Shown here: positions 13,248 through 51,337 of the stretch, piece after piece | How positions within the stretch are numbered: position 1 is the stretch's first letter | Layout of the letters: every line of letters begins with the position of its first letter | From: Kineosporia succinea | Lineage (GTDB): Bacteria; Actinomycetota; Actinomycetes; Actinomycetales; Kineosporiaceae | Reading direction: 5' to 3' | DNA length: 64,000 nucleotides | NCBI RefSeq assembly: GCF_030811555.1 | Contig: NZ_JAUSQZ010000001.1 | Location: forward strand, 620,001-684,000 | The notes under the pieces: generated by a model | Database searches by the model: none | Told to the model about the DNA's origin: nothing | Seen by the model: the letters and a program-made list of their open reading frames with translations, nothing else | Program-made: the position numbers and the translations under genes

Positions 13248-13342
13248 CTGCCGGGCTCGCCCTACCTGGCCTGCCGGGCTTGCCCTACCTGGCCTTGTCG
13301 GGCTCGCCCTACCTGGCCAGCCGGGCTCGCGCCCTACCGGGC
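13248..13342. repeat. 23-25 bp tandem repeat spanning the FAD-dehydrogenase stop codon, 4 copies
   Basis: Four contiguous units at 13248-13270, 13271-13293, 13294-13317 and 13318-13342. Each contains CGCCCTACC or a close variant, i.e. a TAG on the minus strand. The gene's real TAG (13334-13336) is in the unit at 13318-13342, so the unit is built from the gene's own last codons. Confidence 0.85.
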
Positions 13343-14983
13343 CTGCTGGGCCGCCGCTCTTCCCGCGGCCCGGCCGCTGAAGAGGCATCCGCCCAGGAAG
13401 GTGCCCTCGAGCGCCCGGTAGCCGTGCATCCCGCCGCCTCCGAACCCGGCCACCTCCCCGGCCGCGAAGAGCCCGGGCACCGGCGTGCCGTCGGCCCCGA
13501 GCACGCGGGACTCGAGATCGGTGTGCAGGCCGCCGAGGGTCTTGCGGGTCAGGACGTTCAGGCGCACGGCGATCAGCGGACCGGCCGACGGGTCGAGCAG
13601 ACGCTTCTCGGCGGCCGTGCGCATCAGCCGGTTGAGGAAGTAGCCGCGCAGGTCGCGGATGGCGAGGATCTGGTCGTCGGTGGACGAGGGATCGACGATC
13701 TGCCGGTCGCGCTCCAGCACCGCCTTCTCGACCGTGGGCAGGTCGAGCAGGGGCTGGTCGGTGGTGGCGTTCATGGCGCGCACCAGTGACGGCAGGTCGT
13801 CGGCGGTGAGGAAGTCCTGGCCGTTGTCGAGGAAGTCCTGCACCGGCTTCGTGGCCCCCGGCCGCACCCGGCCCAGCAGCTTCGAAATTGACTTGCCGGT
13901 GAGGTCGGGGTTCTGCTCGGAACCGCTGAGCGTGAACTCCTTCTCGACGATCTTCTGGTGGAGCACGAACCAGCTGTGGTCGTGGCCGGTGGCGGTGCGC
14001 AGGTGCTCGAGGGTGCCCAGGGTGTCGGCGCCCGGGTAGAGGTGCGGGGGCAGGCGGTGACCGAGCGCGTCGATCCACAGCGACGAGGGGCCGGGCAGGA
14101 TGCGGATGCCGTGGCTCGGCCAGACCGCGTCCCAGTTGTGCACGCCCTCCACGTAGTGCCACATGCGATCGGGGTTGATCACCGTGCCGCCGGCGCTGCG
14201 GGTGATGCCGATCATGCGGCCGTCGACGTGGGCGGGAACGCCGGTGACCATGGTGGACGGGGCGGTCCCGAGCCGCTGCGGCCACGCCTCCCGCACCAGG
14301 TCGTGGTTGCCACCGATACCGCCGGAGGTGACGATCACCTGCCCGGTGAGGCTGAACTCGCCCTTCTCGGTGCGGTTGCTGGCGACTCCGCGCGGGCGCC
14401 GGTCGTTCTCGAGGACCCGGCCCCGCACCCCGGTGACCGTTCCCGCGTCCGTGAGCAGCGCGTCCACCCGGTGCCGGAACGCGAACGTGACCAGCCCGTC
14501 GGCCTGGGCCTGACGCACGCGCCGGGCGAACGGCTCGACCACGCCGGGCCCGGTGCCCCAGGTGATGTGGAAGCGCGGCACCGTGTTGCCGTGGGTGCCG
14601 GGACGACCTCCGCCACGTTCGGGCCAGCCGACCAGCGGGAACCACTTCAGCCCCCGCTCCTGCAGCCACGAGCGCTTCTCCCCCGCCGCGAAGTCGACGT
14701 ACGCCTGCGCCCAGCGACGCGGCCAGAGGTCTTCGTCGCGGTCGAAACCGGCGGTGTCCTGCCAGTCCTGCCAGGCCAGCTCGTGCGAGTCCTTGATCTT
14801 CATGCGGCGCTGCTCGGGGGTGCCGACGAGGAAGAGGCCGCCGAACGACCAGAACGCCTGCCCGCCCAGGTTCTGCTCGCCCTCCTGGTCGACGAGGATC
14901 ACCCGCCGGCCGGCGTCGGCCAGCTCGGCCGTCGCGACCAGTCCCGCCAGGCCCGCACCCACCACGATGACGTCAGCGTCCAT
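13334..14983 (-). CDS. FAD-binding dehydrogenase (FAD_binding_2 family)
   Basis: 549 residues of the fumarate reductase/ketosteroid-dehydrogenase-like flavoprotein superfamily. The Rossmann motif DVIVVGAGLAGLVATAELADAG begins at residue 4, and the FAD-closing region GLFAAGEVAGFGGGGMHGYRALEGTFLGG is near the C-terminus. The whole length matches the actinobacterial putative FAD-binding dehydrogenase group (PRK12834-type) whose substrate is not established; steroid or other ring dehydrogenation is possible. No signal peptide. The stop codon lies in a four-copy tandem repeat. Monocistronic as far as seen. Confidence 0.88.
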   Translation of the reverse strand: MDADVIVVGAGLAGLVATAELADAGRRVILVDQEGEQNLGGQAFWSFGGLFLVGTPEQRRMKIKDSHELAWQDWQDTAGFDRDEDLWPRRWAQAYVDFAAGEKRSWLQERGLKWFPLVGWPERGGGRPGTHGNTVPRFHITWGTGPGVVEPFARRVRQAQADGLVTFAFRHRVDALLTDAGTVTGVRGRVLENDRRPRGVASNRTEKGEFSLTGQVIVTSGGIGGNHDLVREAWPQRLGTAPSTMVTGVPAHVDGRMIGITRSAGGTVINPDRMWHYVEGVHNWDAVWPSHGIRILPGPSSLWIDALGHRLPPHLYPGADTLGTLEHLRTATGHDHSWFVLHQKIVEKEFTLSGSEQNPDLTGKSISKLLGRVRPGATKPVQDFLDNGQDFLTADDLPSLVRAMNATTDQPLLDLPTVEKAVLERDRQIVDPSSTDDQILAIRDLRGYFLNRLMRTAAEKRLLDPSAGPLIAVRLNVLTRKTLGGLHTDLESRVLGADGTPVPGLFAAGEVAGFGGGGMHGYRALEGTFLGGCLFSGRAAGRAAAQQAR

Positions 14984-15087
14984 CGACGAATCCCATCACG
15001 CCCGCCCGGATTCGCCCAGGCCCGTTCACCGCATCGTGATCACGCGACGTGCGGACGGGCGGTGTCGTCGTGTGCATGTGACCGCGC

Positions 15088-17295
<2,208 letters not shown>

Positions 17296-17414
17296 TCAGC
17301 ACGCTCCGGGGTCGCCCGCCGGACGGAAGGCGCATGATCACGAGCGAATCGACGGGGGACGCACCGGCCGGCGACCGTCTCGGGTCACCGGACGGCGGCG
17401 CACCCCGGAACCGG

Positions 17415-20699: not shown

Positions 20700-20756
20700 G
20701 GTCCGGCAGCATAGAGGGCGGTTCTGAGCGCGAACCACGGTGCCTGAGGACGCGTC

Positions 20757-20837
20757 GGTCGCCTTCCGGTCGACTCGGTCGCCTTCCCGGTCGACTCGGT
20801 CGCCTTCCGGTCGGCGCGGTGGCCTTCCGGCCGGCGT
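20757..20837. repeat. 20-bp tandem repeat behind the mnmA stop codon, 4 copies
   Basis: Units of type GGTCGCCTTCCGGTCGACTC at 20757-20776, 20777-20797, 20798-20817 and 20818-20837, ending 5 bp from the mnmA TGA (20843-20845). The copy next to mnmA is the most divergent. Confidence 0.85.
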
Positions 20838-20842
20838 GAACC

Positions 20843-21961
20843 TCAGGCGGTGGCGCTGATGGTGGACGAGCCGATCACCTGGGTGCCCCGGTACAGCACC
20901 AGGGTCTGCCCGGTGGCGACCCCGCTGATCGGCTCGTCGAGCTCCACGTGCACAGTGGCCGGGAGGGTCTGCAGCGAACCGGCCCCAGAACCCGGCCCCG
21001 TGCTCGAGCCGAGCGACACCACGCGCGCCGGCACCTCGCGTCCGTGCGCCCTGACCTGGACCGAAACCGCCGCCCCGGGCTCGGGCACGGGCGCGCACCA
21101 GGTGGCCTCCGCCCCCGTGATCGCACGCACCTTCAGCTCCTCGGCCGAACCCACGACCACGGTGTTCGAGACCGGCTCGATCGACAGCACGTAGCGCGGC
21201 CTGCCGTCGGCGGCCGGCGTGCCGATCGCCAGGCCACGCCGCTGCCCGACCGTGAAACCGTAGGCGCCGGAGTGCTCACCGAGCTGCTGCCCCTCGGAGT
21301 CGACGATCGGGCCGGGCTTCTCCCCCAGCCGCTTGGCCAGGAAACCCTGCGTGTCACCGTCGGAGATGAAGCAGATGTCGTGGCTGTCGGGCTTGCTCGC
21401 GACCCGCAGACCGCGCTCGGCGGCCTCGATGCGCACGTCTTCCTTGCGGGTGTCGCCCAGCGGGAACAGCGAACGGGCCAGCCGGTCGGGCGGGAGCACC
21501 GCCAGCACGTACGACTGGTCTTTGCCCATGTCGACGGCGCGATGCAGCTCCGGGCCGTGCGGGCCGTCGAGCATCTGCGCGTAGTGCCCGGTGCTGACGG
21601 CGTCGAACCCGAGGGCGACGGCCTTGTCGAGCAGCGCGGCGAACTTGATCTTCTGGTTGCAGCGCACGCACGGGTTGGGGGTGCGGCCGATCTTGTACTC
21701 GGCCACGAAGTCGTCGATCACGTCTTGCTGGAAGCGCTCGGCCAGGTCCCAGACGTAGAACGGGATGCCGAGGATGTCGGCGACCCGGCGGGCGTCGCCG
21801 GCGTCTTCGATCGTGCAGCAGCCCCGGGCCCCGGCGCGCAGGGTCTGCGGGTTGCGGGCCAGCGCCAGGTGCACGCCGACCACCTCGTGACCGGCGTCGA
21901 CGGCGCGCGCGGCAGCCACGGCGGAATCCACGCCGCCGCTCATCGCAGCCAGTACTCGCAT
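20843..21961 (-). CDS. mnmA: tRNA-specific 2-thiouridylase MnmA
   Basis: 372 residues. MnmA installs sulfur at C2 of the wobble uridine (U34) of tRNA-Lys, -Glu and -Gln, using ATP and a persulfide relayed from a cysteine desulfurase. The PP-loop motif SGGVDS is at 8-13. The catalytic cysteines are Cys98 (NPCVRCN) and Cys197 (SHDICFI). The sulfur source is plausibly the product of the next gene upstream, 37 bp away on the same strand, forming a two-gene operon. The 3' end is followed by a tandem repeat. Confidence 0.97.
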
Positions 21962-24319: not shown

Positions 24320-25099
24320 TCAGACCAGCTTGGCGGCGGCGAGGAACTCGACCAGCTTGGTGCCGCCGTCGCCCTCGTCCTTCACGACCTGGCCGGCGGT
24401 GCGGGCGGGGCGCTCGGTCACCGCGGAGACCGCGGTCCAGGCGGCGGACAGGCCCACCTCGTCGGCGGACAGGCCCAGGTCTTCCAGGGTCCAGGTCTGC
24501 AGCGGCTTCTTCTTGGCGGCCATGATCCCCTTGAACGAGGGGTAGCGCGGCTCGTTGATCTGGTCGGTGACGCTGACGACAGCGGGAAGGCTCGCCTCGA
24601 TGATCTCGGTGCTGGCGTCGTTGTCGCGGCGGATCGTGGCCTTGCCGTCGGCCACCGTGAGCTCGCTGGCCAGCGTGATCTGGGGCAGGCCGAGGCGCTC
24701 GGCGAGCATCGCGGGCACGACGCCCATCGCGGCGTCGGTCGAGGCCATGCCGGTGAGCACCAGGTCGTACTCGAGCTTGGCGAGCGCGGCGGCCAGGATC
24801 TTGGAGGTGGCCAGGGCGTCGGAGCCGTGGATCGCGTCGTCCTCGACGTGGACGGCCTCGTGGGCGCCCATCTGCAGCGCCTTGCGGGCGGCGTCGGTCG
24901 CGTCCTCGGGGCCGACCGTGAGCACGGTGACCTTGCCGTCGGTGGCCTCGGCGAGCTTCAGGGCCTCCTCGACCGGGTACTCGTCGAGCTCGGAGAGCAG
25001 GCCGTCGACGTTTTCACGGTCCGTGGTGTTGTCGTCGGCCGAGAATGCCCGGTCCGCCTGGGCGTCCGGTACGTACTTCACACACACCACGATGTTCAT
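24320..25099 (-). CDS. etfB: Electron transfer flavoprotein beta subunit
   Basis: 259 residues. EtfB binds AMP and pairs with EtfA. It opens with MNIVVCVKYVPD and contains the adenine-binding loop TVGPEDATDAARKALQMGAHEAVHV and the recognition-loop region VVPAMLAERLGLPQITLASEL. The start at 25099 has GAGAGG 5-6 nt upstream; a longer frame to 25180 lacks a ribosome site and conservation. First gene of etfB-etfA. Confidence 0.97.
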   Translation of the reverse strand: MNIVVCVKYVPDAQADRAFSADDNTTDRENVDGLLSELDEYPVEEALKLAEATDGKVTVLTVGPEDATDAARKALQMGAHEAVHVEDDAIHGSDALATSKILAAALAKLEYDLVLTGMASTDAAMGVVPAMLAERLGLPQITLASELTVADGKATIRRDNDASTEIIEASLPAVVSVTDQINEPRYPSFKGIMAAKKKPLQTWTLEDLGLSADEVGLSAAWTAVSAVTERPARTAGQVVKDEGDGGTKLVEFLAAAKLV

Positions 25100-25272
25100 G
25101 AGCGCCTCTCGACTTCTTACGCGTTGGTGGGACGACCGCTTGTCTGGCGTCAGTTTCTCACCCGTCACGGGCACGGCCATCCGCGGCAGTTCTGATCCAA
25201 CACGCTAACCGTCGAGAGAGATCGCTCTCATCGCCCCCCTGTGAATTAACTCACCCGGATGTGTCTTTATTG

Positions 25273-25312
25273 AAGGACCTCCGGCGGGTTCGGAGGACCT
25301 CAGGCGGGCAGC
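25273..25312. repeat. 20-bp duplication spanning a stop codon
   Basis: Two adjacent 20-bp units (25273-25292, 25293-25312) sharing the core GGACCTCMGGCGGG. The gene-side unit includes the TGA (25300-25302) and the last codons of the unknown gene at 25300-26505. It also forms a weak hairpin. Confidence 0.6.
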
Positions 25313-26505
25313 GCCAGGCCGAGACTGACACCCATCCCGGGCGTCGGCCGCTCCTCGCTCACATCGGGGACGGGCAGCGTGGTGGGCGGGCTCGAGGGCA
25401 CCGGCAGCGTGATCTCGCGGGCGACCAGGTCGAGGAAGGTCAGGCTGGTGATGCGGCAGATCATCAGCCGGGCGTCGAGGCCGGCGACCGGGGCGGGCAG
25501 CAGCTCGTGCAGGTGGTGCTGCAGGTAGAACTGCCGGGCCGGGCCGATCCAGCCACCCGAGCCGTAGCAGCGGCAGGTCAGGTCGTAGGCGGCGATGGCC
25601 TCGGCCTCGCGGGCGCGGCGCTCCTGGCGGCGCAGGGAGCGGCGGGTGTGAACCCTCACCCGCTGGCGGAACATGTCCAGGCCGCCCACGCCGACGCCGG
25701 TCGCGGCGGCCTTCCAGTCCGCGCGGAACGACGGCGGCAGCGACGCGTCACCCATCCCCTCAGCGGCCAGGGCCTTCGCCGGACCGCCGAAACCGCAGCG
25801 CTGGAGCACGTGCACGGTCAGCGCGGCCGGGTCCTCGTCGGGCAGCGCGATCCGCTGGGCCTGACCGGTCAGGCCGAGGGCCTGGCCGTAGTCCTCCTGC
25901 CGGGCCAGGTCGGCCGCGGCGATGGTGAGCATGCGCAGGTCGCGGCAGCCCCCGGCGCGGGCGGAGCGGGCCAGCGGCGCGGCCGTGACCAGGTCGCCGA
26001 CCGACACCGCGGCCAGCGCGACGATCCAGTCGAGCCCGGCCGACGGCTGCACCTTGGACGCGGCCTCCTGCACCGCCGTCAGGTCGCCGGTGCCGGCGAG
26101 CAGCTCCGAGACCCGTCCGAGCAGGTCGAGCCAGGGACTGGCCGGGGCCAGGCGGGACTTGCTGATCACCGTGACGTTGCGCCGGGTCCGCTCCGACGTC
26201 CCCTCGACCAGCTCGTCGAGCAGCTCCTGCGACCGCGCGTGCAGACCCGCGAGCACAGCCAGCTCGGCCTGGCGCACGACATCGACGCGTTCCTGGGCCG
26301 GGTGCACGTCGAGCGCCTCGGTGTACAGACCCGCCGCCGACAGGGCGTCGCTCCACTGCCGCAGCACCTCCGGCGGGGGGCCGTCGGCGCGCAGCACGCT
26401 GGGCGGGATCTGGCCCGGGCGTACCGGCATGACCAGACTCCGTGTCGGCTGGGCCGTCTCGGGGGTCGGCTGGTCGTCGGGTACTTCCACGGGGCGCTGG
26501 CTCAC
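25300..26505 (-). CDS. Hypothetical protein, 401 residues
   Basis: I do not recognise this family. It is a soluble, helix-rich protein rich in Ala and Leu. Segments such as PPPEVLRQWSDALSAAGLYTEALDV, RQAELAVLAGLHARSQELLDEL and WIVALAAVSVGDLVTAAPLARSARAGG are spaced like tetratricopeptide helices. A basic stretch VRVHTRRSLRRQERRAREAEA is near residue 280, followed by a YDLTCRCYGSGGWIGPARQFYLQHHLHELLP segment with two Cys. N- and C-terminal tails are Pro-rich. No signal peptide or membrane helix. It stands alone between etfB and the methyltransferase gene. A TPR-like scaffold is only a guess. Confidence 0.7.
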   Translation of the reverse strand: MSQRPVEVPDDQPTPETAQPTRSLVMPVRPGQIPPSVLRADGPPPEVLRQWSDALSAAGLYTEALDVHPAQERVDVVRQAELAVLAGLHARSQELLDELVEGTSERTRRNVTVISKSRLAPASPWLDLLGRVSELLAGTGDLTAVQEAASKVQPSAGLDWIVALAAVSVGDLVTAAPLARSARAGGCRDLRMLTIAAADLARQEDYGQALGLTGQAQRIALPDEDPAALTVHVLQRCGFGGPAKALAAEGMGDASLPPSFRADWKAAATGVGVGGLDMFRQRVRVHTRRSLRRQERRAREAEAIAAYDLTCRCYGSGGWIGPARQFYLQHHLHELLPAPVAGLDARLMICRITSLTFLDLVAREITLPVPSSPPTTLPVPDVSEERPTPGMGVSLGLALPA

Positions 26506-26562: not shown

Positions 26563-29151
26563 CTACTTCCGGCCGGTCAGCCCCACGGTGGGGAACGCGG
26601 CCGCAGGCAGGAACTGCGACAGCTTCCGGTCCAGCTGGGCCAGCCGCTCGCGGGAGCGGATCACCGCCGCCCCCGGCTCCGCACCCGGGTACGGCAGCAC
26701 CGTGGCGAGCAGCTCCTCGGGCTTGACCATCACGTCCTTGGCCCCGGCCTCGGCCGCGACGGCGCGCAGCCGGTCGGGCACGGCCGGCCCGGCGTCGGGG
26801 GCGCCCGTCAGGGTGCGCAGCCGTTCGGGCAGCCGGGTGCGGGCCTGCCCCGCCCGCGACATCCCGACCCGCCCGACGCTGCCCTGAGCCCGCGCGAACC
26901 CGGGCGACGCCCAGTCCCGCACGCGGGTCGACTCCCCGGTGATGACGAACCGCCCGCCCGGACGCAACACCCGCAGGACCTCCGTCAGCGTCGCCGCCGG
27001 ATCCATCCGCCGGTGCAGCAGGGCGTGCGCGATCACCAGGTCGAAGCGCCCGTCCGCGAACGGCAGCATCTCCGGGTCCCCGAGCTCGTCCCCCTCCACC
27101 CGAAGTCCAAGCTGGTCCGCCCGTTTCCGCGCCGCCGTCAGAGCCGACGTCGCGAGATCACTGACCCACAGCCGCTTCACGACCCCCGCCTGCAACAACC
27201 CCAGCGAGAACCCGAACGTAGAACCGGCCCCCACCTCGAGCGCGTCCCCGTACGGCTGCTTCTCATGCCGCTGCACCCGCGCCCCGACCAGCGCCGAGAA
27301 CCGATCACGGGCATACCCAGCCCCCTGAGCCCCCTTGTCTCCCGCCCGAAGCCCCCCGGCAGACCTCCCGGCAACGGACGCCCCGGTCACGTCACGCTCC
27401 GACCCCCCGGTCGACCCCGTCCCCGACTTCCCGGCAACGGACGCGCCCCTCACCTCACGCCCCGCCCCCGCGGTCCCGCCCGTCCCCGACTCCCCGGCAA
27501 CGGACGCGCCCGTCGCCTCACGCACCGCCCCCGCAGTCAGCCTCGTCCTCGACTTCACATCAGAGGACGCACCGGTGACCTCGACCAGCTGGCCTTCATT
27601 TTCACCCACGTCCGACTTCCCCGCGGCGGACGCGCGCTCACTCCCACTCCCCACGCCAGCAGCTGACTCACCGCTCGAGGACGAACTCGCCTCCACCAGT
27701 ATGGCCTCCCTGTCGCCCGCCTCGCTGACACCTGTGGATAAGCCCCCACCTGTGGATTCCGCAGAGCCAGGGGGAACAGCACCCTCTATACCCGATCGGT
27801 ATAGGGGGGTGTGTTGCGTTGCGGGCGAGGTCGTCTCAGATTCCCCGCTCGCCACAGGTGCCTCAGCGGCAGAGGCAGCGGACGGCGCTGCTCGGCCGGT
27901 GGATGCGTCGGTCGACCCGGCGGATGCATCGGTCGACCCGGCGGATGCGTCGGTCGACCCGGCGGATGCATCGGTCGCCCCGGCGCTCTCCGCGACCGGG
28001 GAAGAAGCAGAGGCCGAGGCAGAACCCTCCGTCTCAGGGGTAGGGGCAGAGGCGGGGGCAGGGGTAGAGGCGGGGGCGGGGGCAGAGACGGGGGCAGAGG
28101 CGGGGGCGGGGGCAGGCGGAGCCTGATCTGACACAGCCGACGCGTCGGTGGCACCAGCCGGAGCAACGGGCTCCGCCGCAGTCACGCGCCTCGCTGGAGT
28201 GGTGGTCGCAGCCGTCGTGGCGGGCTCCACCACCGTGGCGGGCGCGGCCGGGGCGACGGGCTTCGAGGTGGTGGTGGTGGGCGCTGCCGGGACCGCTGGG
28301 CGGGCTGCGGCGGAACGGTCCACTCCGGGCTTGATCAGCGGGTCGCTCTCCGGGGTCACCGGTGACGGGATCGCTGTCGAGGCGGCGCTTTCGGACGCGT
28401 CGGCATTCGAGGAGGAGCGGTCCGAGGGCGGGGTGGCTGCGGCCAGGACCTGGTCGGGGACCTCGGGGGTCGGGGCCACGGGGGTGGCGGGTGGGTCGGC
28501 GGCAGGGGATGACGCAGCAGTGACCGAAGACTCCGCCTCGACTGCCGTCGGGGAGATCTCGGCGGCCGGGATCGTCTCCGGGGCAGGGGCTGGATCCTTG
28601 GCCAGGGCTGGATCCTTGGCCAGGGCTGGATACTCCGCAGACGCGGCGGTGGGGTCGGTGGGTGGGGTCGGGGTCTTGCGGGGGGTGGTCTTCTTGGCCG
28701 GGCCGCGCTTGGAGGTGGGGCGGCGCGGGGCGGCGGGCTTGGCCGGGTCGGTGCCGGGGGTGGCCTTGACCGCCCGGGGCCTGCGGACCGGGGCCTTCTT
28801 CGGCTGGGCGTCAGCGCCGCCGGGGGCTTCGGGGGCGCCGGCCGCGTCGGTCACGGCCGGGGTGGGCGCTGAATCGGCGGTCGAGGCAGCGGGTTCCGGG
28901 GCCTTCGAGGCTGGGGCCTTCGAGGCCGGGGTCTCCGAGGCCGGGGCCTGCGAGGCCGGAGTCTCCGGGGCCGGGGGTGTGACGGCGCGGCGGGGCGGGC
29001 CGGCCGAGCGGGCGGCCCGCGGGGTACGGGTCGCCCGCGGGGGCCTCTTGCCGGGCGAGACGGGACCGGCCGCCCGTTCCGTCGGACTGTTCACCCCCGA
29101 AGACGCCTTCGCGTCGTCGTCGGTGGGGCCGGCTGCCGTCTCGTCAGTCAT
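26563..29151 (-). CDS. Class I SAM methyltransferase with ~580-residue low-complexity N-terminus
   Basis: 862 residues. Only the last ~270 are a domain: a Methyltransf_11-type SAM fold with motif I LEVGAGSTFGFSLGLL, the acidic motif II region LWVSDLATSALTAARKRADQLG, then DPEMLPFADGRFDLVIAHALLHRRMDPAATLTEVLRVLRPGG. The preceding region is Ala/Pro/Ser/Thr-rich with an early Arg/Lys-rich part (KRPPRATRTPRAARS) and DASAGST repeats; it is probably disordered. The ATG at 29151 overlaps the stop of the enoyl-CoA hydratase gene (ATGA), giving coupled translation and fixing the start. The substrate is unknown. Confidence 0.85.
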   Translation of the reverse strand: MTDETAAGPTDDDAKASSGVNSPTERAAGPVSPGKRPPRATRTPRAARSAGPPRRAVTPPAPETPASQAPASETPASKAPASKAPEPAASTADSAPTPAVTDAAGAPEAPGGADAQPKKAPVRRPRAVKATPGTDPAKPAAPRRPTSKRGPAKKTTPRKTPTPPTDPTAASAEYPALAKDPALAKDPAPAPETIPAAEISPTAVEAESSVTAASSPAADPPATPVAPTPEVPDQVLAAATPPSDRSSSNADASESAASTAIPSPVTPESDPLIKPGVDRSAAARPAVPAAPTTTTSKPVAPAAPATVVEPATTAATTTPARRVTAAEPVAPAGATDASAVSDQAPPAPAPASAPVSAPAPASTPAPASAPTPETEGSASASASSPVAESAGATDASAGSTDASAGSTDASAGSTDASTGRAAPSAASAAEAPVASGESETTSPATQHTPLYRSGIEGAVPPGSAESTGGGLSTGVSEAGDREAILVEASSSSSGESAAGVGSGSERASAAGKSDVGENEGQLVEVTGASSDVKSRTRLTAGAVREATGASVAGESGTGGTAGAGREVRGASVAGKSGTGSTGGSERDVTGASVAGRSAGGLRAGDKGAQGAGYARDRFSALVGARVQRHEKQPYGDALEVGAGSTFGFSLGLLQAGVVKRLWVSDLATSALTAARKRADQLGLRVEGDELGDPEMLPFADGRFDLVIAHALLHRRMDPAATLTEVLRVLRPGGRFVITGESTRVRDWASPGFARAQGSVGRVGMSRAGQARTRLPERLRTLTGAPDAGPAVPDRLRAVAAEAGAKDVMVKPEELLATVLPYPGAEPGAAVIRSRERLAQLDRKLSQFLPAAAFPTVGLTGRK
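27901..27984. repeat. In-frame 21-bp tandem repeat, 4 copies
   Basis: Four contiguous 21-bp units (27901-27921, 27922-27942, 27943-27963, 27964-27984) inside the methyltransferase gene, encoding seven-residue STDASAG-type repeats. Confidence 0.85.
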
Positions 29152-29930
29152 CAACGTCCTTCGAATTTTGCCTTGCCCGGGCCGTTCTCGATGAACGACT
29201 GCATGCCCAGGGTGCGGTCCTTGGTCGCGAACAGGCCTGAGAACAAGCCTCGTTCGATCTCCTGACCGGTGGCCAGGTCGGTCTCCAGGCCCCGGTCGAC
29301 AGCTTCCTTGGCGGCGCGCAGCGCGACGGCCGCACCCCCCACGTACATCCGCATCCGGCGCCGGGCGGTCTCGAAGACCTCGGCGGCCGGCACCACCTCG
29401 TCGACCAGGCCGATCGTCAGGGCCTCGGCCGCATCGACGAAACGGCCGCTGAAGATGAGGTCCTTCGCCCTCGACGGGCCCACCAGCCGGGGCAGGCGCT
29501 GCGTGCCGCCGGCGCCCGGGATCAGGCCGAGCAGGATCTCCGGCTGGCCCAGCCGCGCGTCGTCGGCCGCCACCCGGAAGTCGCACGCCAGCGCCAGTTC
29601 GCAGCCCCCGCCGAGCGCGTAGCCGGTGATCGCGGCCACCGTCGGCTTGGGGATCGACGCCACCGCGTCGAACGCCTTCTGCAGCCGGGCCCCGCGCACG
29701 AAGGCGTCGGTGTAGTCCATCGGCTGCATCTCTTTGATGTCGGCCCCGGCCGCGAACACGTCCGGCCCGCCGTACACGACCACCGCGGCGATGTCGGGCC
29801 GGGCCGCCGCGTCTTCCGCGGCGTTCCGGATGCCCTCGGTCATCTCCGCGTTCAGCGCGTTCATCGTCGGCCGCGACAGCCGGATGACCCCGATCGAGTC
29901 CTCCACGTCGAGGTGCACGAGCTCGGTCAC
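29151..29930 (-). CDS. Enoyl-CoA hydratase/isomerase family protein
   Basis: 259 residues, crotonase fold. Likely hydrates trans-2-enoyl-CoA in fatty-acid beta-oxidation. Oxyanion-hole motifs are AVVVYGGPDVFAAGADIKEM and ALGGGCELALACDFR; the two catalytic acids are likely in the segments PEILLGLIPGAGGTQRLPRLVG. The GTG at 29930 is preceded by GAGAGGGAG at 7 nt, so I prefer it over the GTG at 29954. It is translationally coupled to the methyltransferase gene downstream. EtfAB in this window would accept electrons from the preceding acyl-CoA dehydrogenase step. Confidence 0.93.
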   Translation of the reverse strand: MTELVHLDVEDSIGVIRLSRPTMNALNAEMTEGIRNAAEDAAARPDIAAVVVYGGPDVFAAGADIKEMQPMDYTDAFVRGARLQKAFDAVASIPKPTVAAITGYALGGGCELALACDFRVAADDARLGQPEILLGLIPGAGGTQRLPRLVGPSRAKDLIFSGRFVDAAEALTIGLVDEVVPAAEVFETARRRMRMYVGGAAVALRAAKEAVDRGLETDLATGQEIERGLFSGLFATKDRTLGMQSFIENGPGKAKFEGR

Positions 29931-33591: not shown

Positions 33592-33668
33592 GGCGGTCAG
33601 GCTCTTACGGGGCGGTCGGGCTCTTACGGCGGCGGTCAGGCTCTTACGGGGCGGTCAGGCCCTTACGG
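33592..33668. repeat. 19-20 bp tandem repeat spanning the amine-oxidase stop codon, 4 copies
   Basis: Units of type GGCGGTCAGGCTCTTACGG at 33592-33610, 33611-33630, 33631-33649 and 33650-33668. The last encodes the gene's own RKGLTA; the next carries its TAA (33644-33646). The other two lie beyond the stop and extend to within 20 bp of the next start. Confidence 0.88.
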
Positions 33669-34765
33669 GAACGGTCGAGCGAGAACAGCGGGTCGGGACG
33701 GGGGCCGTCGGTGGCCAGATCGGCGAGGATCCGGCCGATCGCCGGCACGAACTTGAAGCCGGTGCCGGAGAACCCGGCGGCGACCACGACCGGCCCGGAA
33801 CGGTCGAGCACGAACACCTCGTCGGGCGTGCTCGTGTAGGTACAGGTCACGGTCTGCGCGGTGTCCGGGTCGAGCCCGGGCAGCCAGTCGCGCACGTACC
33901 GCTCCAGCGCGGCGCTCAGCTCCGGACGCGGCCGGAAGTCACGCCGTTCCGGATCGATCCGCGGACCGGCGGCGTGGAGACCGACCTTCACGCCCTCCCC
34001 CGGCGTGGCCAGACCGTAGGCCGGGAGACCCGCCGCGAAGTGCCCGAAGCTGGGCCAGTCCTGCCCCTCCTCGAACGGCTGGAAGTGCGCGGGCTGCTCC
34101 TGCGTCACCCGCAACCGCGGGAGCGGCACCAGACCGCCGAGCAGCTGGTCGGTCCATGCCCCCACCGCGACCACCACCCGTCGGGCCCGCAACGGACGGG
34201 AGTCCTGCTCCGTCGAGACCGCGACCGCGTCGTCCCCCAGCACCTCGATCTTCACCACCCGCGTGTGGTGCAGCACCACCGACCCCTGCCTCGCGGCCTG
34301 CGCCTGGAGCGCCGCGACGGCCCGGTCGGCGTGCAGGCGCCCGCTGTCGGGATGGAACAGCGCGCGGCCCTCGACCCGCAGGCCCGGCCAGCGTCGGCCC
34401 GCCTCGCCGGCATCGACCCAGTGGCTCTCCACCCCGGCCTCCGCCAGCCCCGCGTGCAGCCGGCCGAGGAAGACCGGCGACCCGTGGTCGACACCTCCGG
34501 TGACCGTGAGAAGTGACGTGCCCGAAGCCTTTTCCAGGTCCCGCCAGAGTTCCCGCGCCTCCCGGGCCAGCGCGATGTGAGGCGCGTCGGGGTACGACAA
34601 CCGGAAGATCCGCGAGGCCCCGTGCGACGCGCCCCGGGTGTGACCGGGCTCGAACCGCTCGATCAGCAGCACGTCCACCCCGCGCCCGGCGAGCTGCCAG
34701 GCCGCGGCCGATCCCATGGCTCCCCCGCCGACGACGATCACGTCCGCGTCGAGCCCGTTCTTCAC
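33644..34765 (-). CDS. MTOX/sarcosine-oxidase-like FAD-dependent amine oxidase
   Basis: 373 residues of the monomeric sarcosine oxidase / N-methyltryptophan oxidase (DAO) family. It oxidises a secondary amine or N-methyl amino acid with O2, giving H2O2. The Rossmann motif ADVIVVGGGAMGSAAAWQLAGRG is at the N-terminus. The covalent-flavin motif TCTYTSTPDE places Cys308 at the position that carries 8-alpha-S-cysteinyl FAD in MSOX, and AAGFSGTGFKFVPAIG closes the domain. The GTG at 34765 has GGGAGG 8 nt upstream; an ATG exists at 34828 without a good site. The divergent ABC transporter may import the substrate; both share the 34766-34860 promoter region. Confidence 0.9.
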   Translation of the reverse strand: MKNGLDADVIVVGGGAMGSAAAWQLAGRGVDVLLIERFEPGHTRGASHGASRIFRLSYPDAPHIALAREARELWRDLEKASGTSLLTVTGGVDHGSPVFLGRLHAGLAEAGVESHWVDAGEAGRRWPGLRVEGRALFHPDSGRLHADRAVAALQAQAARQGSVVLHHTRVVKIEVLGDDAVAVSTEQDSRPLRARRVVVAVGAWTDQLLGGLVPLPRLRVTQEQPAHFQPFEEGQDWPSFGHFAAGLPAYGLATPGEGVKVGLHAAGPRIDPERRDFRPRPELSAALERYVRDWLPGLDPDTAQTVTCTYTSTPDEVFVLDRSGPVVVAAGFSGTGFKFVPAIGRILADLATDGPRPDPLFSLDRSRKGLTAP

Positions 34766-35084: not shown

Positions 35085-36032
35085 GTGAGCGCCGACCCCT
35101 CTCTCGCCCCGCCCGCGGTGGCCCGGAGCGAACCCGACCCGCTGGCCGCCGGCACGGTCGTGAAGCTGCGTCACCCCTGGCGCTGGGCCGCGACCGCCGT
35201 CGTCGCCGTGCTGACCGCCCAGGTCCTGCACGGCCTGTTCACCAACGAGTTCTACCAGTGGGCCCGGTTCCGGCACTGGTTCCTGCAGGGCGCCGTGATC
35301 GACGGCCTGCTCGTCACCCTGCAGGTCGCGGCCTGGAGCGCACTGCTCGGCCTGACCGGCGGCATCGTGCTGGCCCTGATGCGCCAGTCGCCCAATCCCC
35401 TTCTGCAGGCGGTCAGCTGGACCTACATCTGGCTGTTCCGCTCGATCCCGCTGGTCGTGCTGCTGCTCATCCTGTTCAACTTCTCGGCTCTGTATCCGGA
35501 GCTGTCGCTGGGCATCCCGTTCGGCCCGGGGTTCGCGTCGTTCCGGACCACCGACCTGCTCGGCTACATGACGATCGGCGTCATCGGCCTGAGCCTGAAC
35601 GAGGCGGCGTACGCGGCCGAGGTGGTGCGCTCCGGCATCAACTCCGTCGACCAGGGCCAGCACGAGGCCGCCACCGCGCTCGGCCTGGGCAAGGGCCGTC
35701 AGTTCCGCCGGATCGTGCTGCCGCAGGCGCTGCGGGCGATCGTGCCGGCCTACGTCAACCAGCTCGTCAACCTGATCAAGGCCAGCTCGCTGGTGTTCTA
35801 CGTGTCCCTGCTCGACCTGTTCGGCACCGTGCAGAGCCTGGGCTCGACCTTTCCCGGCGACCTGATCCCGCTGCTGCTCGTGGCCACGGTCTGGTACGTG
35901 ATCCTCACCAGCGTGCTGTCGGTGCTGCAGTACTACGTGGAGCGTCACTACGCCCGCGGCGCCCTGCGCACCGTTCCCCCGACCCCGTTCCAGCGTCTGC
36001 GTAAACTCGTTGCCACCCGGAGCTTCTCGTGA
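35085..36032 (+). CDS. ABC transporter permease, polar amino acid type
   Basis: 315 residues, HisM/GlnP-like permease with about five or six membrane helices. The TIGR01726-type HEQRO region is GLLVTLQVAAWSALLGLTGGIVLALMR, and the cytoplasmic EAA loop for the ATPase is EAATALGLGKGRQFRRIVLPQALRAIVP. The GTG at 35085 has GAGGAGA at 35071-35077. Its stop overlaps the ATPase GTG by 4 bp (GTGA). Together with the ATPase and the binding protein it forms an importer; the divergent amine oxidase hints at an N-methylated or cyclic amino acid as substrate. Confidence 0.92.
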   Translation: MSADPSLAPPAVARSEPDPLAAGTVVKLRHPWRWAATAVVAVLTAQVLHGLFTNEFYQWARFRHWFLQGAVIDGLLVTLQVAAWSALLGLTGGIVLALMRQSPNPLLQAVSWTYIWLFRSIPLVVLLLILFNFSALYPELSLGIPFGPGFASFRTTDLLGYMTIGVIGLSLNEAAYAAEVVRSGINSVDQGQHEAATALGLGKGRQFRRIVLPQALRAIVPAYVNQLVNLIKASSLVFYVSLLDLFGTVQSLGSTFPGDLIPLLLVATVWYVILTSVLSVLQYYVERHYARGALRTVPPTPFQRLRKLVATRSFS

Positions 36033-36799
36033 CCGATCCGCGTCCGGCCGTGGAGATCCGCGGCGCCACCAAGGCCTACGGCACGCACACCGTGCTCGAC
36101 GACGTGAACCTCACCCTCGCCCCCGGACAGGTCGCCGCGCTGATCGGCCCCTCGGGCGCCGGCAAGTCCACCCTGCTGCGCACGATCAACCACCTCGACC
36201 GGCTCGACCGCGGCTACGTGCGACTGTTCGGCGAACTGGTCGGCGTGCGGGAGCAGCGCGGCCGGCTGCACGAGCTCACCGACCGGGCGATCCGGGCCCA
36301 GCGCGCGCGGATCGGGTTCGTGTTCCAGAACTTCAACCTGTTCCCGCATCTCACCATCCTGGAGAACGTGATCGAGGCGCCGCTGGCGCACCGGCTGTTC
36401 CCCCGGGAGGAGGCCCGGGCCCGGGGCCTGGCCCTGCTCGAGCGGGTCGGGATCGGCGAGAAGGCCCACGCCTACCCGCGTCAGCTCTCCGGCGGCCAGC
36501 AGCAGCGCGCCGCGATCGCCCGGGCCCTGGCCCTGGAGCCCGAGCTCATCCTGTTCGACGAGCCCACCTCCGCGCTCGACCCGGAACTGGTCGGCGAGGT
36601 GCTCTCGGTGATCCGGGACCTGGCCGGCACCGGCACCACGCTCGTCATCGTCACCCACGAGATCGCCTTCGCCCGGGAGGTCGCCGACCAGGTCTACTTC
36701 CTGGCCGACGGCCGGCTCGTCGAGCACGGCCCGGCGAAGCAGCTCATCGACTCGCCCCAGCACCCGCGCACCCGTGAGTTCCTCGCCCGGGTGCTCTGA
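36029..36799 (+). CDS. ABC transporter ATP-binding protein, polar amino acid type
   Basis: 256 residues, GlnQ/HisP-like ATPase. Walker A is GPSGAGKST, the Q loop is VFQNFNLFPH, the signature is LSGGQQQRAAIARAL, Walker B is LILFDEPTSALDPE, and the H loop is TLVIVTHEIAFA. It energises the permease encoded just upstream (4-bp overlap). Its last three codons and stop form the first unit of a six-copy tandem repeat. Confidence 0.95.
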   Translation: MTDPRPAVEIRGATKAYGTHTVLDDVNLTLAPGQVAALIGPSGAGKSTLLRTINHLDRLDRGYVRLFGELVGVREQRGRLHELTDRAIRAQRARIGFVFQNFNLFPHLTILENVIEAPLAHRLFPREEARARGLALLERVGIGEKAHAYPRQLSGGQQQRAAIARALALEPELILFDEPTSALDPELVGEVLSVIRDLAGTGTTLVIVTHEIAFAREVADQVYFLADGRLVEHGPAKQLIDSPQHPRTREFLARVL

Positions 36800-36889
36800 A
36801 ACCCCGGGTGCCCTGAAACCCCGGGTGCTCTGAAACCCCGGGTGCTCTGAAAACCCGGGTGCTCTGAAAACCCGGGTGCTCTGAAATCC
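36789..36889. repeat. 17-bp tandem repeat starting at the ABC ATPase stop codon, 6 copies
   Basis: Six units of type GGGTGCTCTGAAACCCC from 36789 to 36889, the first five 17 bp and the last truncated. The first contains the real TGA (36797-36799) and last codons. Each junction forms CCCGGG. Because the period is 17, the copied TGA falls in all three frames. Confidence 0.92.
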
Positions 36890-46736: not shown

Positions 46737-46799
46737 CGACGGGCAGTCTTCACGCGTGCGCGCACCGACACTATTCGTGACCAGTCGTGCGCATGGTGC

Positions 46800-48383
46800 A
46801 TGCCGGTGAACGAGGCCCCGCCCCGCGGCCCGGGTCCCGCCGCCGACGAGCCGTCGTTCGCCCTCTACGGTCCTGACCCGCTCGAGCCGGTGCGTGACGC
46901 CGTGGTCCGGCTCGACACCGAGGCCTTCGTGCGGTGCTTCACGGCAGGCGGTCGCCTGCGGGTGCCCCGGCGCGACGGCGACATCCTCGTCACCGGTCAC
47001 GACGAGATCGCCCGCGCCGCCCGCGACCTCACGCTGATGATCCGCGAGGTCTCCTGGACCCCGCACCGTCGCTTCGTCTCCTCCGGCGAGGTGACGGAGG
47101 AGGCCGTGCTCACCGCCCACCGGTCCCCCGGCCGCGCCGCTCGCGGAGGCCGGGTCAACCGCACCGCCCGGGTCAACCGCACCGCCCGGGCCGACCGGGC
47201 GCCCGTGTCCCCACCCGCCCCGGCCTCCCGGCCAGAGCCGACCCCTGAGCCGGACTCGACCCCTGGGCCGGACTCGACCCTTGAGCCGGGCCCCACCCGT
47301 CGGCCAGGCACCACGCTCACACCGGGCTCGTCCGAGCTGCGGGTGCCGCTGCGTGCCGTCGCGACCCTCACCACCGACGGCCTGATCAGCGCGCTCACCC
47401 TCTGGCTGGACTGGGCCGCACTCTCCGGCCCGCACGGCACCGGCTCGGCCGAGGGCACGGCGCGGGCCCTGGTCACCGTCGCCCGCTCCCGCGACGAGCG
47501 AGGACTGCGCGTGCTCCAGACCCCCGCCGCCCCGACGATCCCGCCCCCGCCCGAGGCCTCCGACGCAGCGCACGAACGCCCGGAACCCATGAGCCGGGGC
47601 GCCGTCTGGTGGCAGCTGCACCGCACCACACTGGCCGGTGGCGTCATGGCCCTGGCCGCCGCGGTGCTGCTCGGCTGGGTCGGGCTGAACGTGCTGGTGC
47701 CCCTCTGGCAGGACACCGGCTCCGGTTCGTCCTCGGCTTCGTCCTCGGGCGAAGGGCGTCTGCGCGGCGCCGATACCGCACGGGGTTCCGGAACCACAGC
47801 GGACGGTTCCGCCACGTCGTCCTCAAGCAGCTCGGGCAGTTCAAGCAGCTCGGACGGCTCCGGCTCGGCCGATTCCGGCTCGGACGGCTCCGGCTCGGAC
47901 GGCTCCGGCTCGGCCGATTCCGGCTCGGCCGATTCCGGCTCGGCCGATTCCGGCTCGGCCGACACCACCGGCCGCTCCGGCGCCCCCGTCATCTCCACCG
48001 CCGAGCCCGACGTGATGCCGACGGTTCAGGCCGGGCGCGAAATCACCTTCCTGTCGGACGTTCTCTTCCCCTTCGGGTCGTTCGAACTGTCCCGGCAGGC
48101 CCACGGGCGCCTCGACCAGCTCGCCGCCCAGATCCGCGACACCGGCGTCCGGGGCCAGATCCAGGTCAACGGCTACACCGACAGCATCGGCAGCGAGCCG
48201 CTCAACCTGCGGCTGTCGCGCCAGCGGGCGCAGGCGGTCGCCGAGGCACTGAGCGAGCAGCTGCCCGGGGTCGAGGTCACGCTGCGGGTGCAGGGTTTCG
48301 GCGAGAGCAACCCCCGCGAGAGCAACGCCACCGACGACGGACGCCGCCTCAACCGCCGCGTCATCGTTGTGCTCCCGGAGTGA
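46800..48383 (+). CDS. NTF2-like / transmembrane / OmpA-domain protein
   Basis: 527 residues from the chosen start. Residues about 25-105 and 178-210 form an NTF2-like (SnoaL-type) fold, split by a ~70-residue Arg- then Pro/Thr-rich insert (repeats of [16 protein letters not shown]). One membrane helix at about 279-303 follows, then a Ser/Gly/Asp-rich linker with SADSGS repeats, then an OmpA peptidoglycan-binding domain (about 405-527) with the conserved [25 protein letters not shown] and [22 protein letters not shown]. So an inside sensor-like domain is tied to the cell wall outside. The start is uncertain (ATG 46800; the frame is open to 46695). The stop lies in a three-copy tandem repeat. 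Confidence 0.8.
47851..47960. repeat. In-frame Ser/Gly/Asp-coding tandem repeat
   Basis: Degenerate repeats of the hexamer-based unit GGCTCGGACGGCTCC and GGCTCGGCCGATTCC inside the OmpA-family gene, encoding the linker between membrane helix and wall-binding domain. Confidence 0.8.
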
Positions 48384-48418
48384 GTCGTGCTCCCGGAGTG
48401 AGTCGTGCTCCCGGAGAG
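48369..48418. repeat. 18-bp tandem repeat spanning the OmpA-gene stop codon, 3 copies
   Basis: GTGCTCCCGGAGTGAGTC at 48369-48386 and 48387-48404, then a copy from 48405 with the last bases changed. The first holds the gene's last codons (VLPE) and TGA (48381-48383). The 18-bp period keeps the copied stop in frame. Confidence 0.9.
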
Positions 48419-48482
48419 GTCGGGCAGCCCTCGGCGGTATCGGCCTCAGCGCGAGGGCGGAAGGACAGCCCGGACCTGTTGA

Positions 48483-48544
48483 GAGATGGCCGGACGATCC
48501 ATGAAGAGAACCCGGCCCAACTTTACGGATCGTCACGCCATCTC
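48483..48544. terminator. Long hairpin between the OmpA and CopC genes
   Basis: 18-nt arms at 48483-48500 and 48527-48544 with two mismatches and a 26-nt loop, in the 319-bp gap between convergent genes. Probably terminates the OmpA-family transcript. Confidence 0.65.
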
Positions 48545-48605
48545 AGACACGAGACCCCGTACGCTCCGGCCCGACCATCAGCGGACGCCACCGGCCGACC
48601 GGGAC

Positions 48606-48695
48606 GCGGCGCCCGTCCCAGGACCTGAGACCTGAGCCCAAGGCCCAAGCTCTGAGCCCAGAGTCCTGAGCCCGAGGCCCCAGGACGGGCGCCGC
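48606..48695 (-). terminator. Hairpin behind the copC gene
   Basis: 13-nt perfect arms GCGGCGCCCGTCC (48606-48618) and GGACGGGCGCCGC (48683-48695). The 64-bp loop is a run of degenerate CTGAGCCCA-type repeats. Located 8 bp past the copC stop. Confidence 0.6.
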
Positions 48696-48702
48696 ACCGG
48701 AA

Positions 48703-49341: not shown

Positions 49342-50114
49342 ACCGAGCTCCCGGTCTTGGTCGCGCTGGTCGTGGCGGCCTTCGGCAGCGCGGCCACCCG
49401 ACGCCAGGCGACAGCGGCCAGCAGCACGCCGATCACGCCCACGACCAGGCCGCCGGCGCCGAGCCAGCGGGCGGCCGAGTCGGTGGAGCTGTCAGCAGCG
49501 CTGTCCGTGGTCGCGGCCGTCGTGTCGCCCGCGGCCATGGTGCCGTGGCCACCGGTGGCGTCGGCCGCGGTGACCTCGAACGTCGGGGCCGGGTTCTCCG
49601 GCTCGTCCGCGCCCTCGACGGTGGGCTCGTTCCAGTCCGAGATCTCGCCGTCGGAGTAGGTCTGCTTGGTCGGCAGCTCGATCGTGGTGCCCGACTTCGG
49701 CAGCGGACCCACCGAGATCGAGAACTCCTGGTACTCGCCCGGGTTGATCTGGGTGCCCTTGTCCGCGGTCCAGGTCACCTTGGTCGCGGCCTTGGTGACG
49801 GTGGTGCCGTCCAGGTCGACGGGTTCCGGCAGGTCGGACTCGGTGACCTCCGCCGTCCAGCCGTTCACCGGCTTGGTCATGACCGACGAGAAGGGCGTGT
49901 CCGTAGGCAGCGAGACCTCGATCTCGGTGGTGCCCGCGGTGTCCGACTCGTTCGGCACCCGGAACGTCAGCCGGGAGTAGCCGCCTTCGGCGGTGTTGTC
50001 GGGGGTGACGCGCACGTGCGCCTGCGCGGCGGCGGCGCCCGCGACGGTGAGCGTGGCGGCGGCGAGGAGGGCGGCCCCGGCCCGCAGGGCCAGAGGGGTG
50101 CGTGACTGCGACAT
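49338..50114 (-). CDS. YcnI/DUF1775-like copper-associated membrane protein
   Basis: 258 residues. The signal peptide ends AQA before His33 (HVRVTPDNTAEGGYSRLTFRVPNES), the mature start expected of DUF1775 proteins, in which an N-terminal His binds Cu(II). The beta-sandwich runs to about residue 175, then an acidic linker and one C-terminal membrane helix (GGLVVGVIGVLLAAVAW) with a basic tail. The ATG at 50114 begins the signal peptide; the frame open to 50246 is not coding. First gene of the operon with copC. It probably works with copC in copper acquisition or defence. Confidence 0.9.
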   Translation of the reverse strand: MSQSRTPLALRAGAALLAAATLTVAGAAAAQAHVRVTPDNTAEGGYSRLTFRVPNESDTAGTTEIEVSLPTDTPFSSVMTKPVNGWTAEVTESDLPEPVDLDGTTVTKAATKVTWTADKGTQINPGEYQEFSISVGPLPKSGTTIELPTKQTYSDGEISDWNEPTVEGADEPENPAPTFEVTAADATGGHGTMAAGDTTAATTDSAADSSTDSAARWLGAGGLVVGVIGVLLAAVAWRRVAALPKAATTSATKTGSSV

Positions 50115-50639
50115 GAGTTCAAGCGTCTTTCTGTTGAAGTTCGAAAATGATGGACGAACGAACACGTTCGCCAGGTCCGGCCCCTTCACGAGTGGCCGGG
50201 TGGAGCTACGAATCATGAGACCGGGGCAGACCCGAGCCAGGGCCACCCCGAGAAACCCGGCTGCCTCGAGGAACCGACCACCACAACGGCCGGACGAGCA
50301 GACCGGCGCGCATCGTCACCAGGCCCACATCGGCTGGACCACGTCGGCCGGACCACTCTCGGCCGGACCACTCTCGGAACCGGACCGCCACGAAGAACTG
50401 ACCGACCGCGACAGACCGAGTCACTGCGAAGAGCCCAGTCACTGCGAAGAGACGGCCCACCACAACGGGCCGGGTCACTACGCGGTGACGGATCCCTTCG
50501 CCGCCGTGCCGAATCCAGCCGCCCAGCTGGGCGAAGCCATACCGCCGGAAGCCTGGTCTGTCGTCGGAGGCGGAGTCGTCGGACGACTGGCCGGACGAAG
50601 ACAACTGCCCTCTCCCGCGACACTGTGCCGCCAGGTGGT
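50115..50639. other. Gene-free region upstream of the copper operon
   Basis: About 525 bp that should carry the copper-operon promoter. I see no good gene. It contains short irregular duplications (two copies of TCGGCCGGACCACTC near 50349-50378 and two of CAGTCACTGCGAAGAG near 50417-50452), possibly remnants of older tandem arrays. Confidence 0.6.
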
Positions 50640-51337
50640 CAGGTCGTTGGGCGAGGCTGGCCCGTCGCACCGGTCAGACCGTCAGGCCGCACTGGCCGTC
50701 ACACCGATCAGACCGTCGCACGGATCAGGCCCTCCGACCGGACTGCTCCTCAGACCGGACCGGCCCTCAGACCAGACCGACCCTCAGACCAGACCGCCCC
50801 TCCGACCAGACCGCCCCTCCGACCAGACCGCCCCTCAGACCGGACCGGCCCTCAGACCGGATCGGCCGTCACACCGATCAGACCGTCAGGCTGGGTTGGC
50901 CATCGCACCGGCCAGACCGTGACACGGACCAAGCCCTCAGCACCGACCAGCCGTTTAGACCGGGCAAGCCGTCACAGAGGCCAGGCTCTCAGCCCGGACT
51001 GGCAGTCACACGGATCAGGCCATCGAGCCGGACTGACCGTCACACGATCAGACCGTGACACGAACCAGGCCTCAGCACTGACCGGCCGTCAGACCGGCCA
51101 GGCCATCAGACAGGCCAGGCTCTCAGCCCGGACTGACCGTCATACGGATCAGACCGTCAAGCCGGCTTAACCGTTAGACGGGGCAGACCGTTAGACGGGG
51201 CAGACCGTTAGACAGGGCAGACCGTTAGATGGGACAGACCGCTAGACGGGGACAGACCACTAGGCAGGACAGACCACTAGGCAGGACAGACCGCTAGGCA
51301 GGACAGACCGCTAGGCAGGACAGACCGCTAGGCAGGA
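50640..51337. repeat. 698-bp array of 41 tandem 17-bp units ending in a gene's stop codon
   Basis: Contiguous units, nearly all exactly 17 bp (three of 18 and two of 16), general form CAGACCGTCAGACCGGA. The nine next to the gene (51184-51337) are almost identical (CAGACCGCTAGGCAGGA). Units 17-24 (50913-51048) and 25-32 (51049-51183) match pairwise as an eight-unit higher-order repeat. Farther units are more varied, with local duplications. The last unit contains the TAG (51328-51330) of the membrane-protein gene, read leftwards. No spacers, so not CRISPR. Long open frames across it are by-products of the composition. Confidence 0.93.

What the first reader, a model, noticed from the sequence alone, without database searches (positions are those of the whole stretch)
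13248..51337. Tandem repeats built from gene 3' ends recur at seven loci, each with its own unit
At 13248, 20757, 25273, 33592, 36789, 48369 and 50640, tandem units of 17-24 bp lie at or directly after a stop codon. In six loci the unit includes the gene's last codons and/or stop (TAG, TGA, TAA, TGA, TGA, TAG); in the mnmA case it begins 5 bp behind the stop. Units at different loci are unrelated in sequence, so this is not a dispersed REP/BIME-type element. It looks as if the end of each gene has been copied outwards. About one gene in six is affected, which is far from random. Possible roles: back-up stop codons, mRNA 3'-end structure, or slippage hot spots at terminator DNA. I know of no named system of this kind.
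Basis: partly seen in the sequence, partly recalled or inferred. Interest (0 to 1): 0.85.

Follow-up and report, generated by a model that had tools for sequence, protein, structure and literature searches.

The report
Lineage-specific tandem duplications at gene ends
Short DNA stretches at the ends of several genes in this soil bacterium have been copied outward in tandem, which looks like ordinary, tolerated copying error that happens to be concentrated in this stretch of the genome rather than a dedicated system.

Summary
The arrays are real. In this 64 kb of a Kineosporia-like genome, 6 of 41 called genes have their stop codon inside a tandem repeat; a seventh (mnmA) has one starting 3 bp behind it. 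But the window is a local outlier: in 1.36 Mb sampled elsewhere in the genome, 18 of 1000 stops (and 6 of 1000 starts) lie in a repeat. Rates are similar in four sister species (12/652), Streptomyces (4/223) and Micromonospora (7/292). Coverage has no peak at the stop. It climbs from 4% just behind the stop to 9-10% further out, is 0.4% just before starts, and is highest in convergent gaps. In 27 of 28 comparisons the window's units are not found at orthologous gene ends in relatives beyond background; some relatives carry other arrays there. Best reading: slippage-type duplications that persist where harmless. One spanning a stop codon leaves the protein intact, so gene 3' ends keep them and promoter regions lose them. 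A shared RNA structure was not found; back-up stops are explained as a by-product.

The parts
13241..13355 (-). Tandem array, period 23, 4.9 copies, across the TAG stop (13334-13336) of a FAD-binding oxidoreductase gene 13334-14983(-)
   Evidence: TRF; gene; Pfam FAD_binding_2; gap to the next gene 193 bp against 64, 32 and 49 bp in G001, G003, G005
20755..20839 (-). Tandem array, period 20, starting 3 bp behind the TGA stop of mnmA 20843-21943(-)
   Evidence: TRF (20755-20830); start by self-match scan; Pfam tRNA_Me_trans; no array at this end in G001 and G003, different arrays in G002 and G005
25264..25306 (-). Two ~20-bp copies across the TGA stop of gene 25300-26505(-); approximate ends. 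G001 shows the stop directly against the conserved ATAAAG motif
   Evidence: Self-match scan; ortholog comparison; not listed by TRF at score >=30; no Pfam family for the gene
33592..33669 (-). Tandem array, period 19/39, across the TAA stop (33644-33646) of a DAO-family oxidoreductase gene 33644-34765(-)
   Evidence: TRF; Pfam DAO
36786..36886 (+). Tandem array, period 17, 5.9 copies, across the TGA stop of an ABC ATPase gene 36029-36799(+); first copy encodes the C-terminus conserved in relatives
   Evidence: TRF; Pfam ABC_tran; ortholog comparison; gap 161 bp against 30-46 bp in four sister species
48369..48416 (+). Perfect tandem array, period 18, 2.7 copies, across the TGA stop of an OmpA-domain gene 46800-48383(+); first copy encodes the conserved VVLPE end
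   Evidence: TRF; Pfam OmpA; ortholog comparison
50662..51340 (-). Long degenerate array of ~17-bp units running from the TAG stop (51328-51330) of gene 51328-52002(-) through most of the 1138-bp gap behind it
   Evidence: TRF (several rows); gap length; no Pfam family for the gene; relatives have other or no arrays at this end

Best explanation
These are independent, lineage-specific tandem duplications (minisatellite births) of the slippage type, filtered by selection. A duplication inside a gene or near a start or promoter is usually harmful and is lost. One that lies behind a gene, or straddles its stop codon, leaves the protein as it was, because translation still ends in the first copy; it may then expand by further slippage. 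That makes the unit contain the gene's last codons and stop, and makes the copies run outward. The pattern (position, outward direction, lineage specificity, lack of a peak at the stop) is shown; the slippage step and the selective filter are inferred. The density of this one window is a local excess whose cause is not known.
For: No peak at the stop: outside the window repeat coverage is 1.3% at -20..0, 4.1% at 0..20, 7.1% at 20..50, 8.8% at 50..100 and 10.1% at 100..200 bp relative to the stop, against 0.4% at -20..0 and 2.4% at -50..-20 relative to the start. Gap type outside the window: convergent 16.2%; co-oriented 6.6-8.5% beyond 50 bp from a start and 1.7% within 50 bp; divergent 1.5-4.0% up to 250 bp. 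Stops 18 of 1000, starts 6 of 1000. Similar stop rates in relatives: sisters 12/652, Streptomyces 4/223, Micromonospora 7/292. Lineage specificity: in 27 of 28 ortholog comparisons the best match of the unit lies within the range of 60 unrelated gene ends. First copy equals the conserved C-terminus at 36799 and 48383. Array-bearing gaps are longer than their array-free orthologs in 25 of 31 mixed cases (median +54 bp, p = 0.0008), and only 16 of 31 remain longer when the repeat bases are subtracted, as net insertions would give. Periods: coding arrays are multiples of 3 in 240 of 253; noncoding ones 36, 25 and 29 in the classes 0, 1 and 2 mod 3.
Against: The window itself holds 6 of 41 where the rest of the genome predicts about 0.7, not explained by a uniform process. 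In this genome 36 of 49 arrays in co-oriented gaps lie in the half nearer the stop (p = 0.0014, window included), though sisters (15/28) and Streptomyces (13/24) show no such lean. Streptomyces has as many starts as stops in repeats (4 and 4 of 223). Divergent gaps stay poor in repeats even 100-250 bp from a start (2-4%), so the 5' effect must reach further than the start region; at 250-500 bp they reach 17%, from 4 of 16 gaps. One of 28 ortholog comparisons exceeds background (25300 against G001: 16 of 20, background maximum 14). Gene calls come from my own script and were not compared with a published annotation.
Confidence: 0.75

Rival explanations
1. Local mutational hotspot: something about this stretch of this lineage's chromosome raised the rate of tandem duplication, so gene ends here acquired arrays in a burst.
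For: 6 of 41 stops in the window against 18 of 1000 elsewhere. The roughly corresponding first 64 kb of the sisters' synteny blocks have 0/47, 0/44, 2/47 and 1/43, so the excess belongs to this lineage.
Against: Neighbouring DNA is ordinary: 540-620 kb 2 of 62, 684-864 kb 3 of 141. The window was selected after the fact; about 126 such windows exist per genome. Coding repeats were not tested for an excess here.
Confidence: 0.12
2. The arrays work as transcription terminators or mRNA 3'-end stabilisers made of repeated stem-loops.
For: Convergent gaps are the richest (16.2% outside the window). 3 of 8 folded stretches are clearly more stable than dinucleotide shuffles (z -4.95, -3.16, -2.93).
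Against: The other 5 of 8 are not (z -1.77, -0.78, -0.39, +0.88, +0.90), so there is no shared structure. Units differ between genes and are not found at orthologous ends in 27 of 28 comparisons. Most gene ends have no array (18 of 1000 outside the window).
Confidence: 0.08
3. Back-up stop codons: copies of the stop catch ribosomes that read through the first.
For: The next in-frame stop is nearer in repeat-bearing genes (median 16 codons, n = 18) than in others (43.5, n = 686; p = 0.004).
Against: This follows from copying a unit that holds a stop, whatever the cause. Unit lengths 17, 19, 20 and 23 put successive copies in different frames. The stop rate does not exceed the coverage of noncoding DNA a few bases on.
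Confidence: 0.03
4. Assembly artefact.
For: Tandem repeats are prone to collapse or expansion in assemblies; raw reads were not available here.
Against: The genome is one contig of 8,065,021 bases, copies differ from one another at most loci, and separately assembled sister genomes have arrays of the same kind at other gene ends.
Confidence: 0.02

Closest known systems
Bacterial VNTRs / minisatellites (MLVA loci)
   Same: Head-to-tail units of about 10-100 bp, mostly noncoding here, presence varying between close species; this is what the arrays are.
   Different: Copy number within the species was not tested; here many units include a stop codon.
MIRU-VNTR loci of mycobacteria, such as VNTR3239 (ETR-F) between rnc and fpg (PMC2734929, passages seen)
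   Same: Repeats behind a stop codon that lengthen an otherwise short gap: 279-358 bp in the M. tuberculosis complex against 1-54 bp in other mycobacteria; my gap comparison shows the same kind of growth.
   Different: MIRUs are related 40-100-bp units found at 41 places (same paper); here units are 17-23 bp and unrelated between loci. VNTR3239 starts 40 bp behind the stop and is linked there to expression of the following gene.
Bacterial satellites of Subirana and Messeguer (PMC8625621, passages seen; their 2020 survey PMC7549362 was not held, recalled)
   Same: Noncoding tandem repeats with different sequences at different places.
   Different: Those have a constant unit length (52 nt in the passage seen); here noncoding periods spread from 10 to 134, mostly 10-24.
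REP / BIME elements (recalled)
   Same: Lie behind genes, rich in convergent gaps, poor in divergent gaps.
   Different: REP are one dispersed palindromic family; these units are unrelated to one another.

Membership tests
Minisatellite / VNTR | Head-to-tail copies of a unit of about 10-100 bp | tested here: met
   TRF, six of the seven loci; the seventh has two copies seen by the self-match scan
Minisatellite / VNTR | Copy number varies between strains of one species | not tested
   Only other species were compared: presence and absence differ between them
MIRU | Related 40-100-bp unit interspersed at many loci (PMC2734929, passages) | tested here: not met
   Units 17-23 bp; unit-to-unit matches at shuffled level except two pairs one match above it. 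Of the seven only the mnmA stretch was searched genome-wide: one weak second match, 77% over ~70 bp
REP / BIME | One dispersed palindromic sequence family | tested here: not met
   Unrelated units; no common fold, z from -4.95 to +0.90 in 8 stretches
Constant-length bacterial satellites | Fixed unit length across families (52 nt, PMC8625621 passage; 22/44 recalled) | tested here: not met
   Noncoding periods spread over 10-24 with a tail to 134; the commonest, 18, makes up 10 of 90
Intrinsic terminators | Stable hairpin at the gene end | tested here: inconclusive
   3 of 8 stretches fold clearly better than shuffles; the promoter/terminator scan tool was not run

The most novel reading that the evidence does not exclude
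Outward tandem duplication of gene 3' ends is a standing source of new intergenic DNA and 3' UTR sequence in high-GC actinobacteria. Because a duplication across a stop codon is invisible to the protein, gene ends act as one-way nurseries from which gaps of a few bases grow to hundreds, and in some lineages, as in this window, the process runs in bursts.
Probability: 0.25. Interest if true: 0.5.

Novelty: new member of a known kind. Interest (0 to 1): 0.27.

Why it matters
It warns against reading a striking local cluster as a system: the same test across the genome and its relatives removes the stop-codon preference. If the growth reading holds, it offers a simple, testable account of how new 3' flanks arise in compact genomes: protein-neutral duplications at stops that leave dateable, lineage-specific traces. 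The loci would also serve as strain-typing markers for Kineosporia if copy number proves variable.

Tried and rejected
Hotspot at fixed sites: in 127 ortholog sets (at least 4 of 5 species), 12 have a repeat in 2 or more species; permutation within species and gap-length bins gives 9.4 +/- 2.0, with 142 of 1000 reaching 12. No significant recurrence at the same gene ends, although mnmA (own, G002, G005) and the 51328 gene (own, G001, G003, G005) do recur.

Genus peculiarity: noncoding arrays per noncoding kb are 0.65 in the random own sample, 0.37-0.77 in four sisters, 0.79 in Streptomyces, 0.42 in Micromonospora, 0.00 in Dactylosporangium (4 loci) and 1.26 in three named Kineosporia loci (64 of the 80 loci were used). 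Kineosporia is not clearly special. Some 'noncoding' DNA may hide uncalled genes.

A first gap comparison (26 of 28) counted some convergent and divergent gaps twice; the de-duplicated one (25 of 31; 23 of 29 without the region of the 1007-aa ORF) replaces it.

Mismatch repair: no MutS_V match in the genome, one NucS match. This is kept as background only; it does not explain the pattern.

Literature: ten answered searches listed nothing on stop-anchored tandem repeats as a system; only listings were seen, plus passages of PMC2734929, PMC8625621 and PMC12817950 (the last on promoter repeats in M. tuberculosis). Subscription journals are mostly not held, so absence from print is not shown.
Full report
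What the window is. The window is positions 620001-684000 of a single-contig 8,065,021-base genome. Its GlgE protein is 88-91% identical to those of Kineosporia mesophila, K. rhizophila and K. babensis, and at most 70% to any other listed, so the organism is a Kineosporia or very close to it. G+C is 71.9%. I called genes with a codon-model script of my own trained on 864 kb of this genome (44 genes in the window). It was not checked against a published annotation, and in one place it seems to have cut a longer reading frame short (26563-29586, see noticed in passing).

The observation. TRF finds arrays at six of the seven places; the seventh, at 25273, is two ~20-bp copies that only my self-match scan reports (18-base words, at least 15 identities, shift 10-40). 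Six have the stop codon inside the repeat; the mnmA array begins 3 bp behind it. The units are unrelated to one another, at the level of shuffled units with two pairs one match above it. With Markov-simulated downstream sequence 2 of 2082 stops would lie in a repeat, so the duplications are real.

Is it a property of the genome? No. In 1.36 Mb outside the window, 18 of 1000 stops and 6 of 1000 starts lie in a repeat; in the window 6 of 41 and 0 of 41. The flanking 80 kb and 180 kb are ordinary (2 of 62, 3 of 141), as are five 60-kb windows elsewhere (0/42, 0/46, 0/49, 1/49, 2/57). With about 126 windows in the genome, the binomial 9e-5 corresponds to about 1% per genome before allowing for how many windows were read in the first stage. 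With the stricter TRF criterion (score >=50) the own sample including the window has 16 of 641 stops and 2 starts covered.

Is the stop special? Outside the window, repeat coverage rises smoothly from 1.3% just inside the gene to 4.1%, 7.1%, 8.8% and 10.1% going outward, and shows no peak; upstream of starts it is 0.4%, 2.4%, 4.1% and 4.2% going outward. By gap type, outside the window: convergent gaps 16.2%; co-oriented gaps 6.6-8.5% beyond 50 bp from a start and 1.7% within 50 bp; divergent gaps 1.5-4.0% up to 250 bp, then 17.0% at 250-500 bp carried by 4 of 16 gaps. Sisters show 12.2% in convergent gaps, Micromonospora 16.2%, Streptomyces 5.6%. The stop rates of the other groups (12/652, 7/292, 4/223) bracket that of this genome. 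Against my reading: in this genome 36 of 49 arrays in co-oriented gaps lie in the stop-side half (window included; sisters 15/28, Streptomyces 13/24, Micromonospora 5/7), and Streptomyces has 4 starts as well as 4 stops in repeats.

How old are they? At the orthologous gene ends of up to five relatives, 27 of 28 comparisons find no match to the unit beyond what 60 unrelated gene ends give; the exception is 25300 against G001 (16 of 20, background maximum 14). Some relatives carry other arrays at the same end: mnmA in G002 and G005, the 51328 gene in G001 and, further out, in G003 and G005. Across 127 ortholog sets such recurrence is not significant once gap length is allowed for (12 observed, 9.4 +/- 2.0 expected).

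Which way were they copied? At 36799 the four sister genes end in -KVL and stop with TAA and have gaps of 30-46 bp; this gene ends in -RVL, TGA, and has a 161-bp gap full of copies of that end. At 48383 the end VVLPE matches relatives, and copies follow. At 25300, G001 has the stop directly against a conserved ATAAAG motif, where this genome has the second copy between them. Over the 24 stop-spanning repeats of the sampled genome, 22 have more repeat behind the stop than before it. Array-bearing gaps are longer than array-free orthologs in 25 of 31 cases, and the surplus largely goes when the repeat bases are subtracted (16 of 31); part of the first figure may come from longer gaps simply offering more room.

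Mechanism. The simplest account is tandem duplication by slippage or a short-homology event (inferred), then loss of those that break coding frames or promoters (inferred from the coding arrays, 240 of 253 with periods divisible by 3, and from the depletion near starts). A duplication across a stop codon leaves the first copy, and so the protein, untouched. The genome has no MutS match and one NucS match; I give this as background only.

Function. Folding gives z from -4.95 to +0.90 over 8 stretches, with 3 of 8 below -2.9: no shared structure. The nearer second in-frame stop (median 16 against 43.5 codons) follows from copying the stop. Neither role is excluded for single loci.

Place among known things. 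These are minisatellites of the VNTR kind. The nearest described case is the rnc-fpg gap of mycobacteria, 279-358 bp of repeats in the M. tuberculosis complex where other species have 1-54 bp (PMC2734929, passages seen). They fail the defining features of MIRU, of REP/BIME and of constant-length satellites.

Noticed in passing
25241-25254: Inverted repeat GTGAATTAACTCAC in the gap between genes 24320-25099 and 25300-26505; the motif and an ATAAAG beside it are kept in all four sister species compared at this place (G003 with one change) while the sequence around it varies. It looks like an operator or promoter element of the gene at 24320-25099.
   Followed up: no
26563-29586 (-): A 1007-aa open frame whose end (residues 783-886) matches methyltransferase domains and whose front is rich in coding tandem repeats with periods 15, 18, 21, 30 and 63. 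My gene caller kept only the last 237 aa, so those arrays were counted as noncoding.
   Followed up: partly
L204-L197 and L212-L205 (G005, G002), gap orthologous to own synteny position about 161.7 kb: A long near-perfect inverted repeat (GTGATCATGCAAAACCTCCCC...GGGGAGGTTTTGCATGATCAC) with inner copies of GAGTTCTAGAACTC fills a convergent gap in both sisters; a similar left arm lies behind the 51328 ortholog in G002. Possibly a dispersed terminator-like element.
   Followed up: no
own synteny gap after 76682 (genome about 696.7 kb): A 945-bp gap with 457 repeat bases where four sister species have -7 to 18 bp: a larger case of gap growth outside the window.
   Followed up: no
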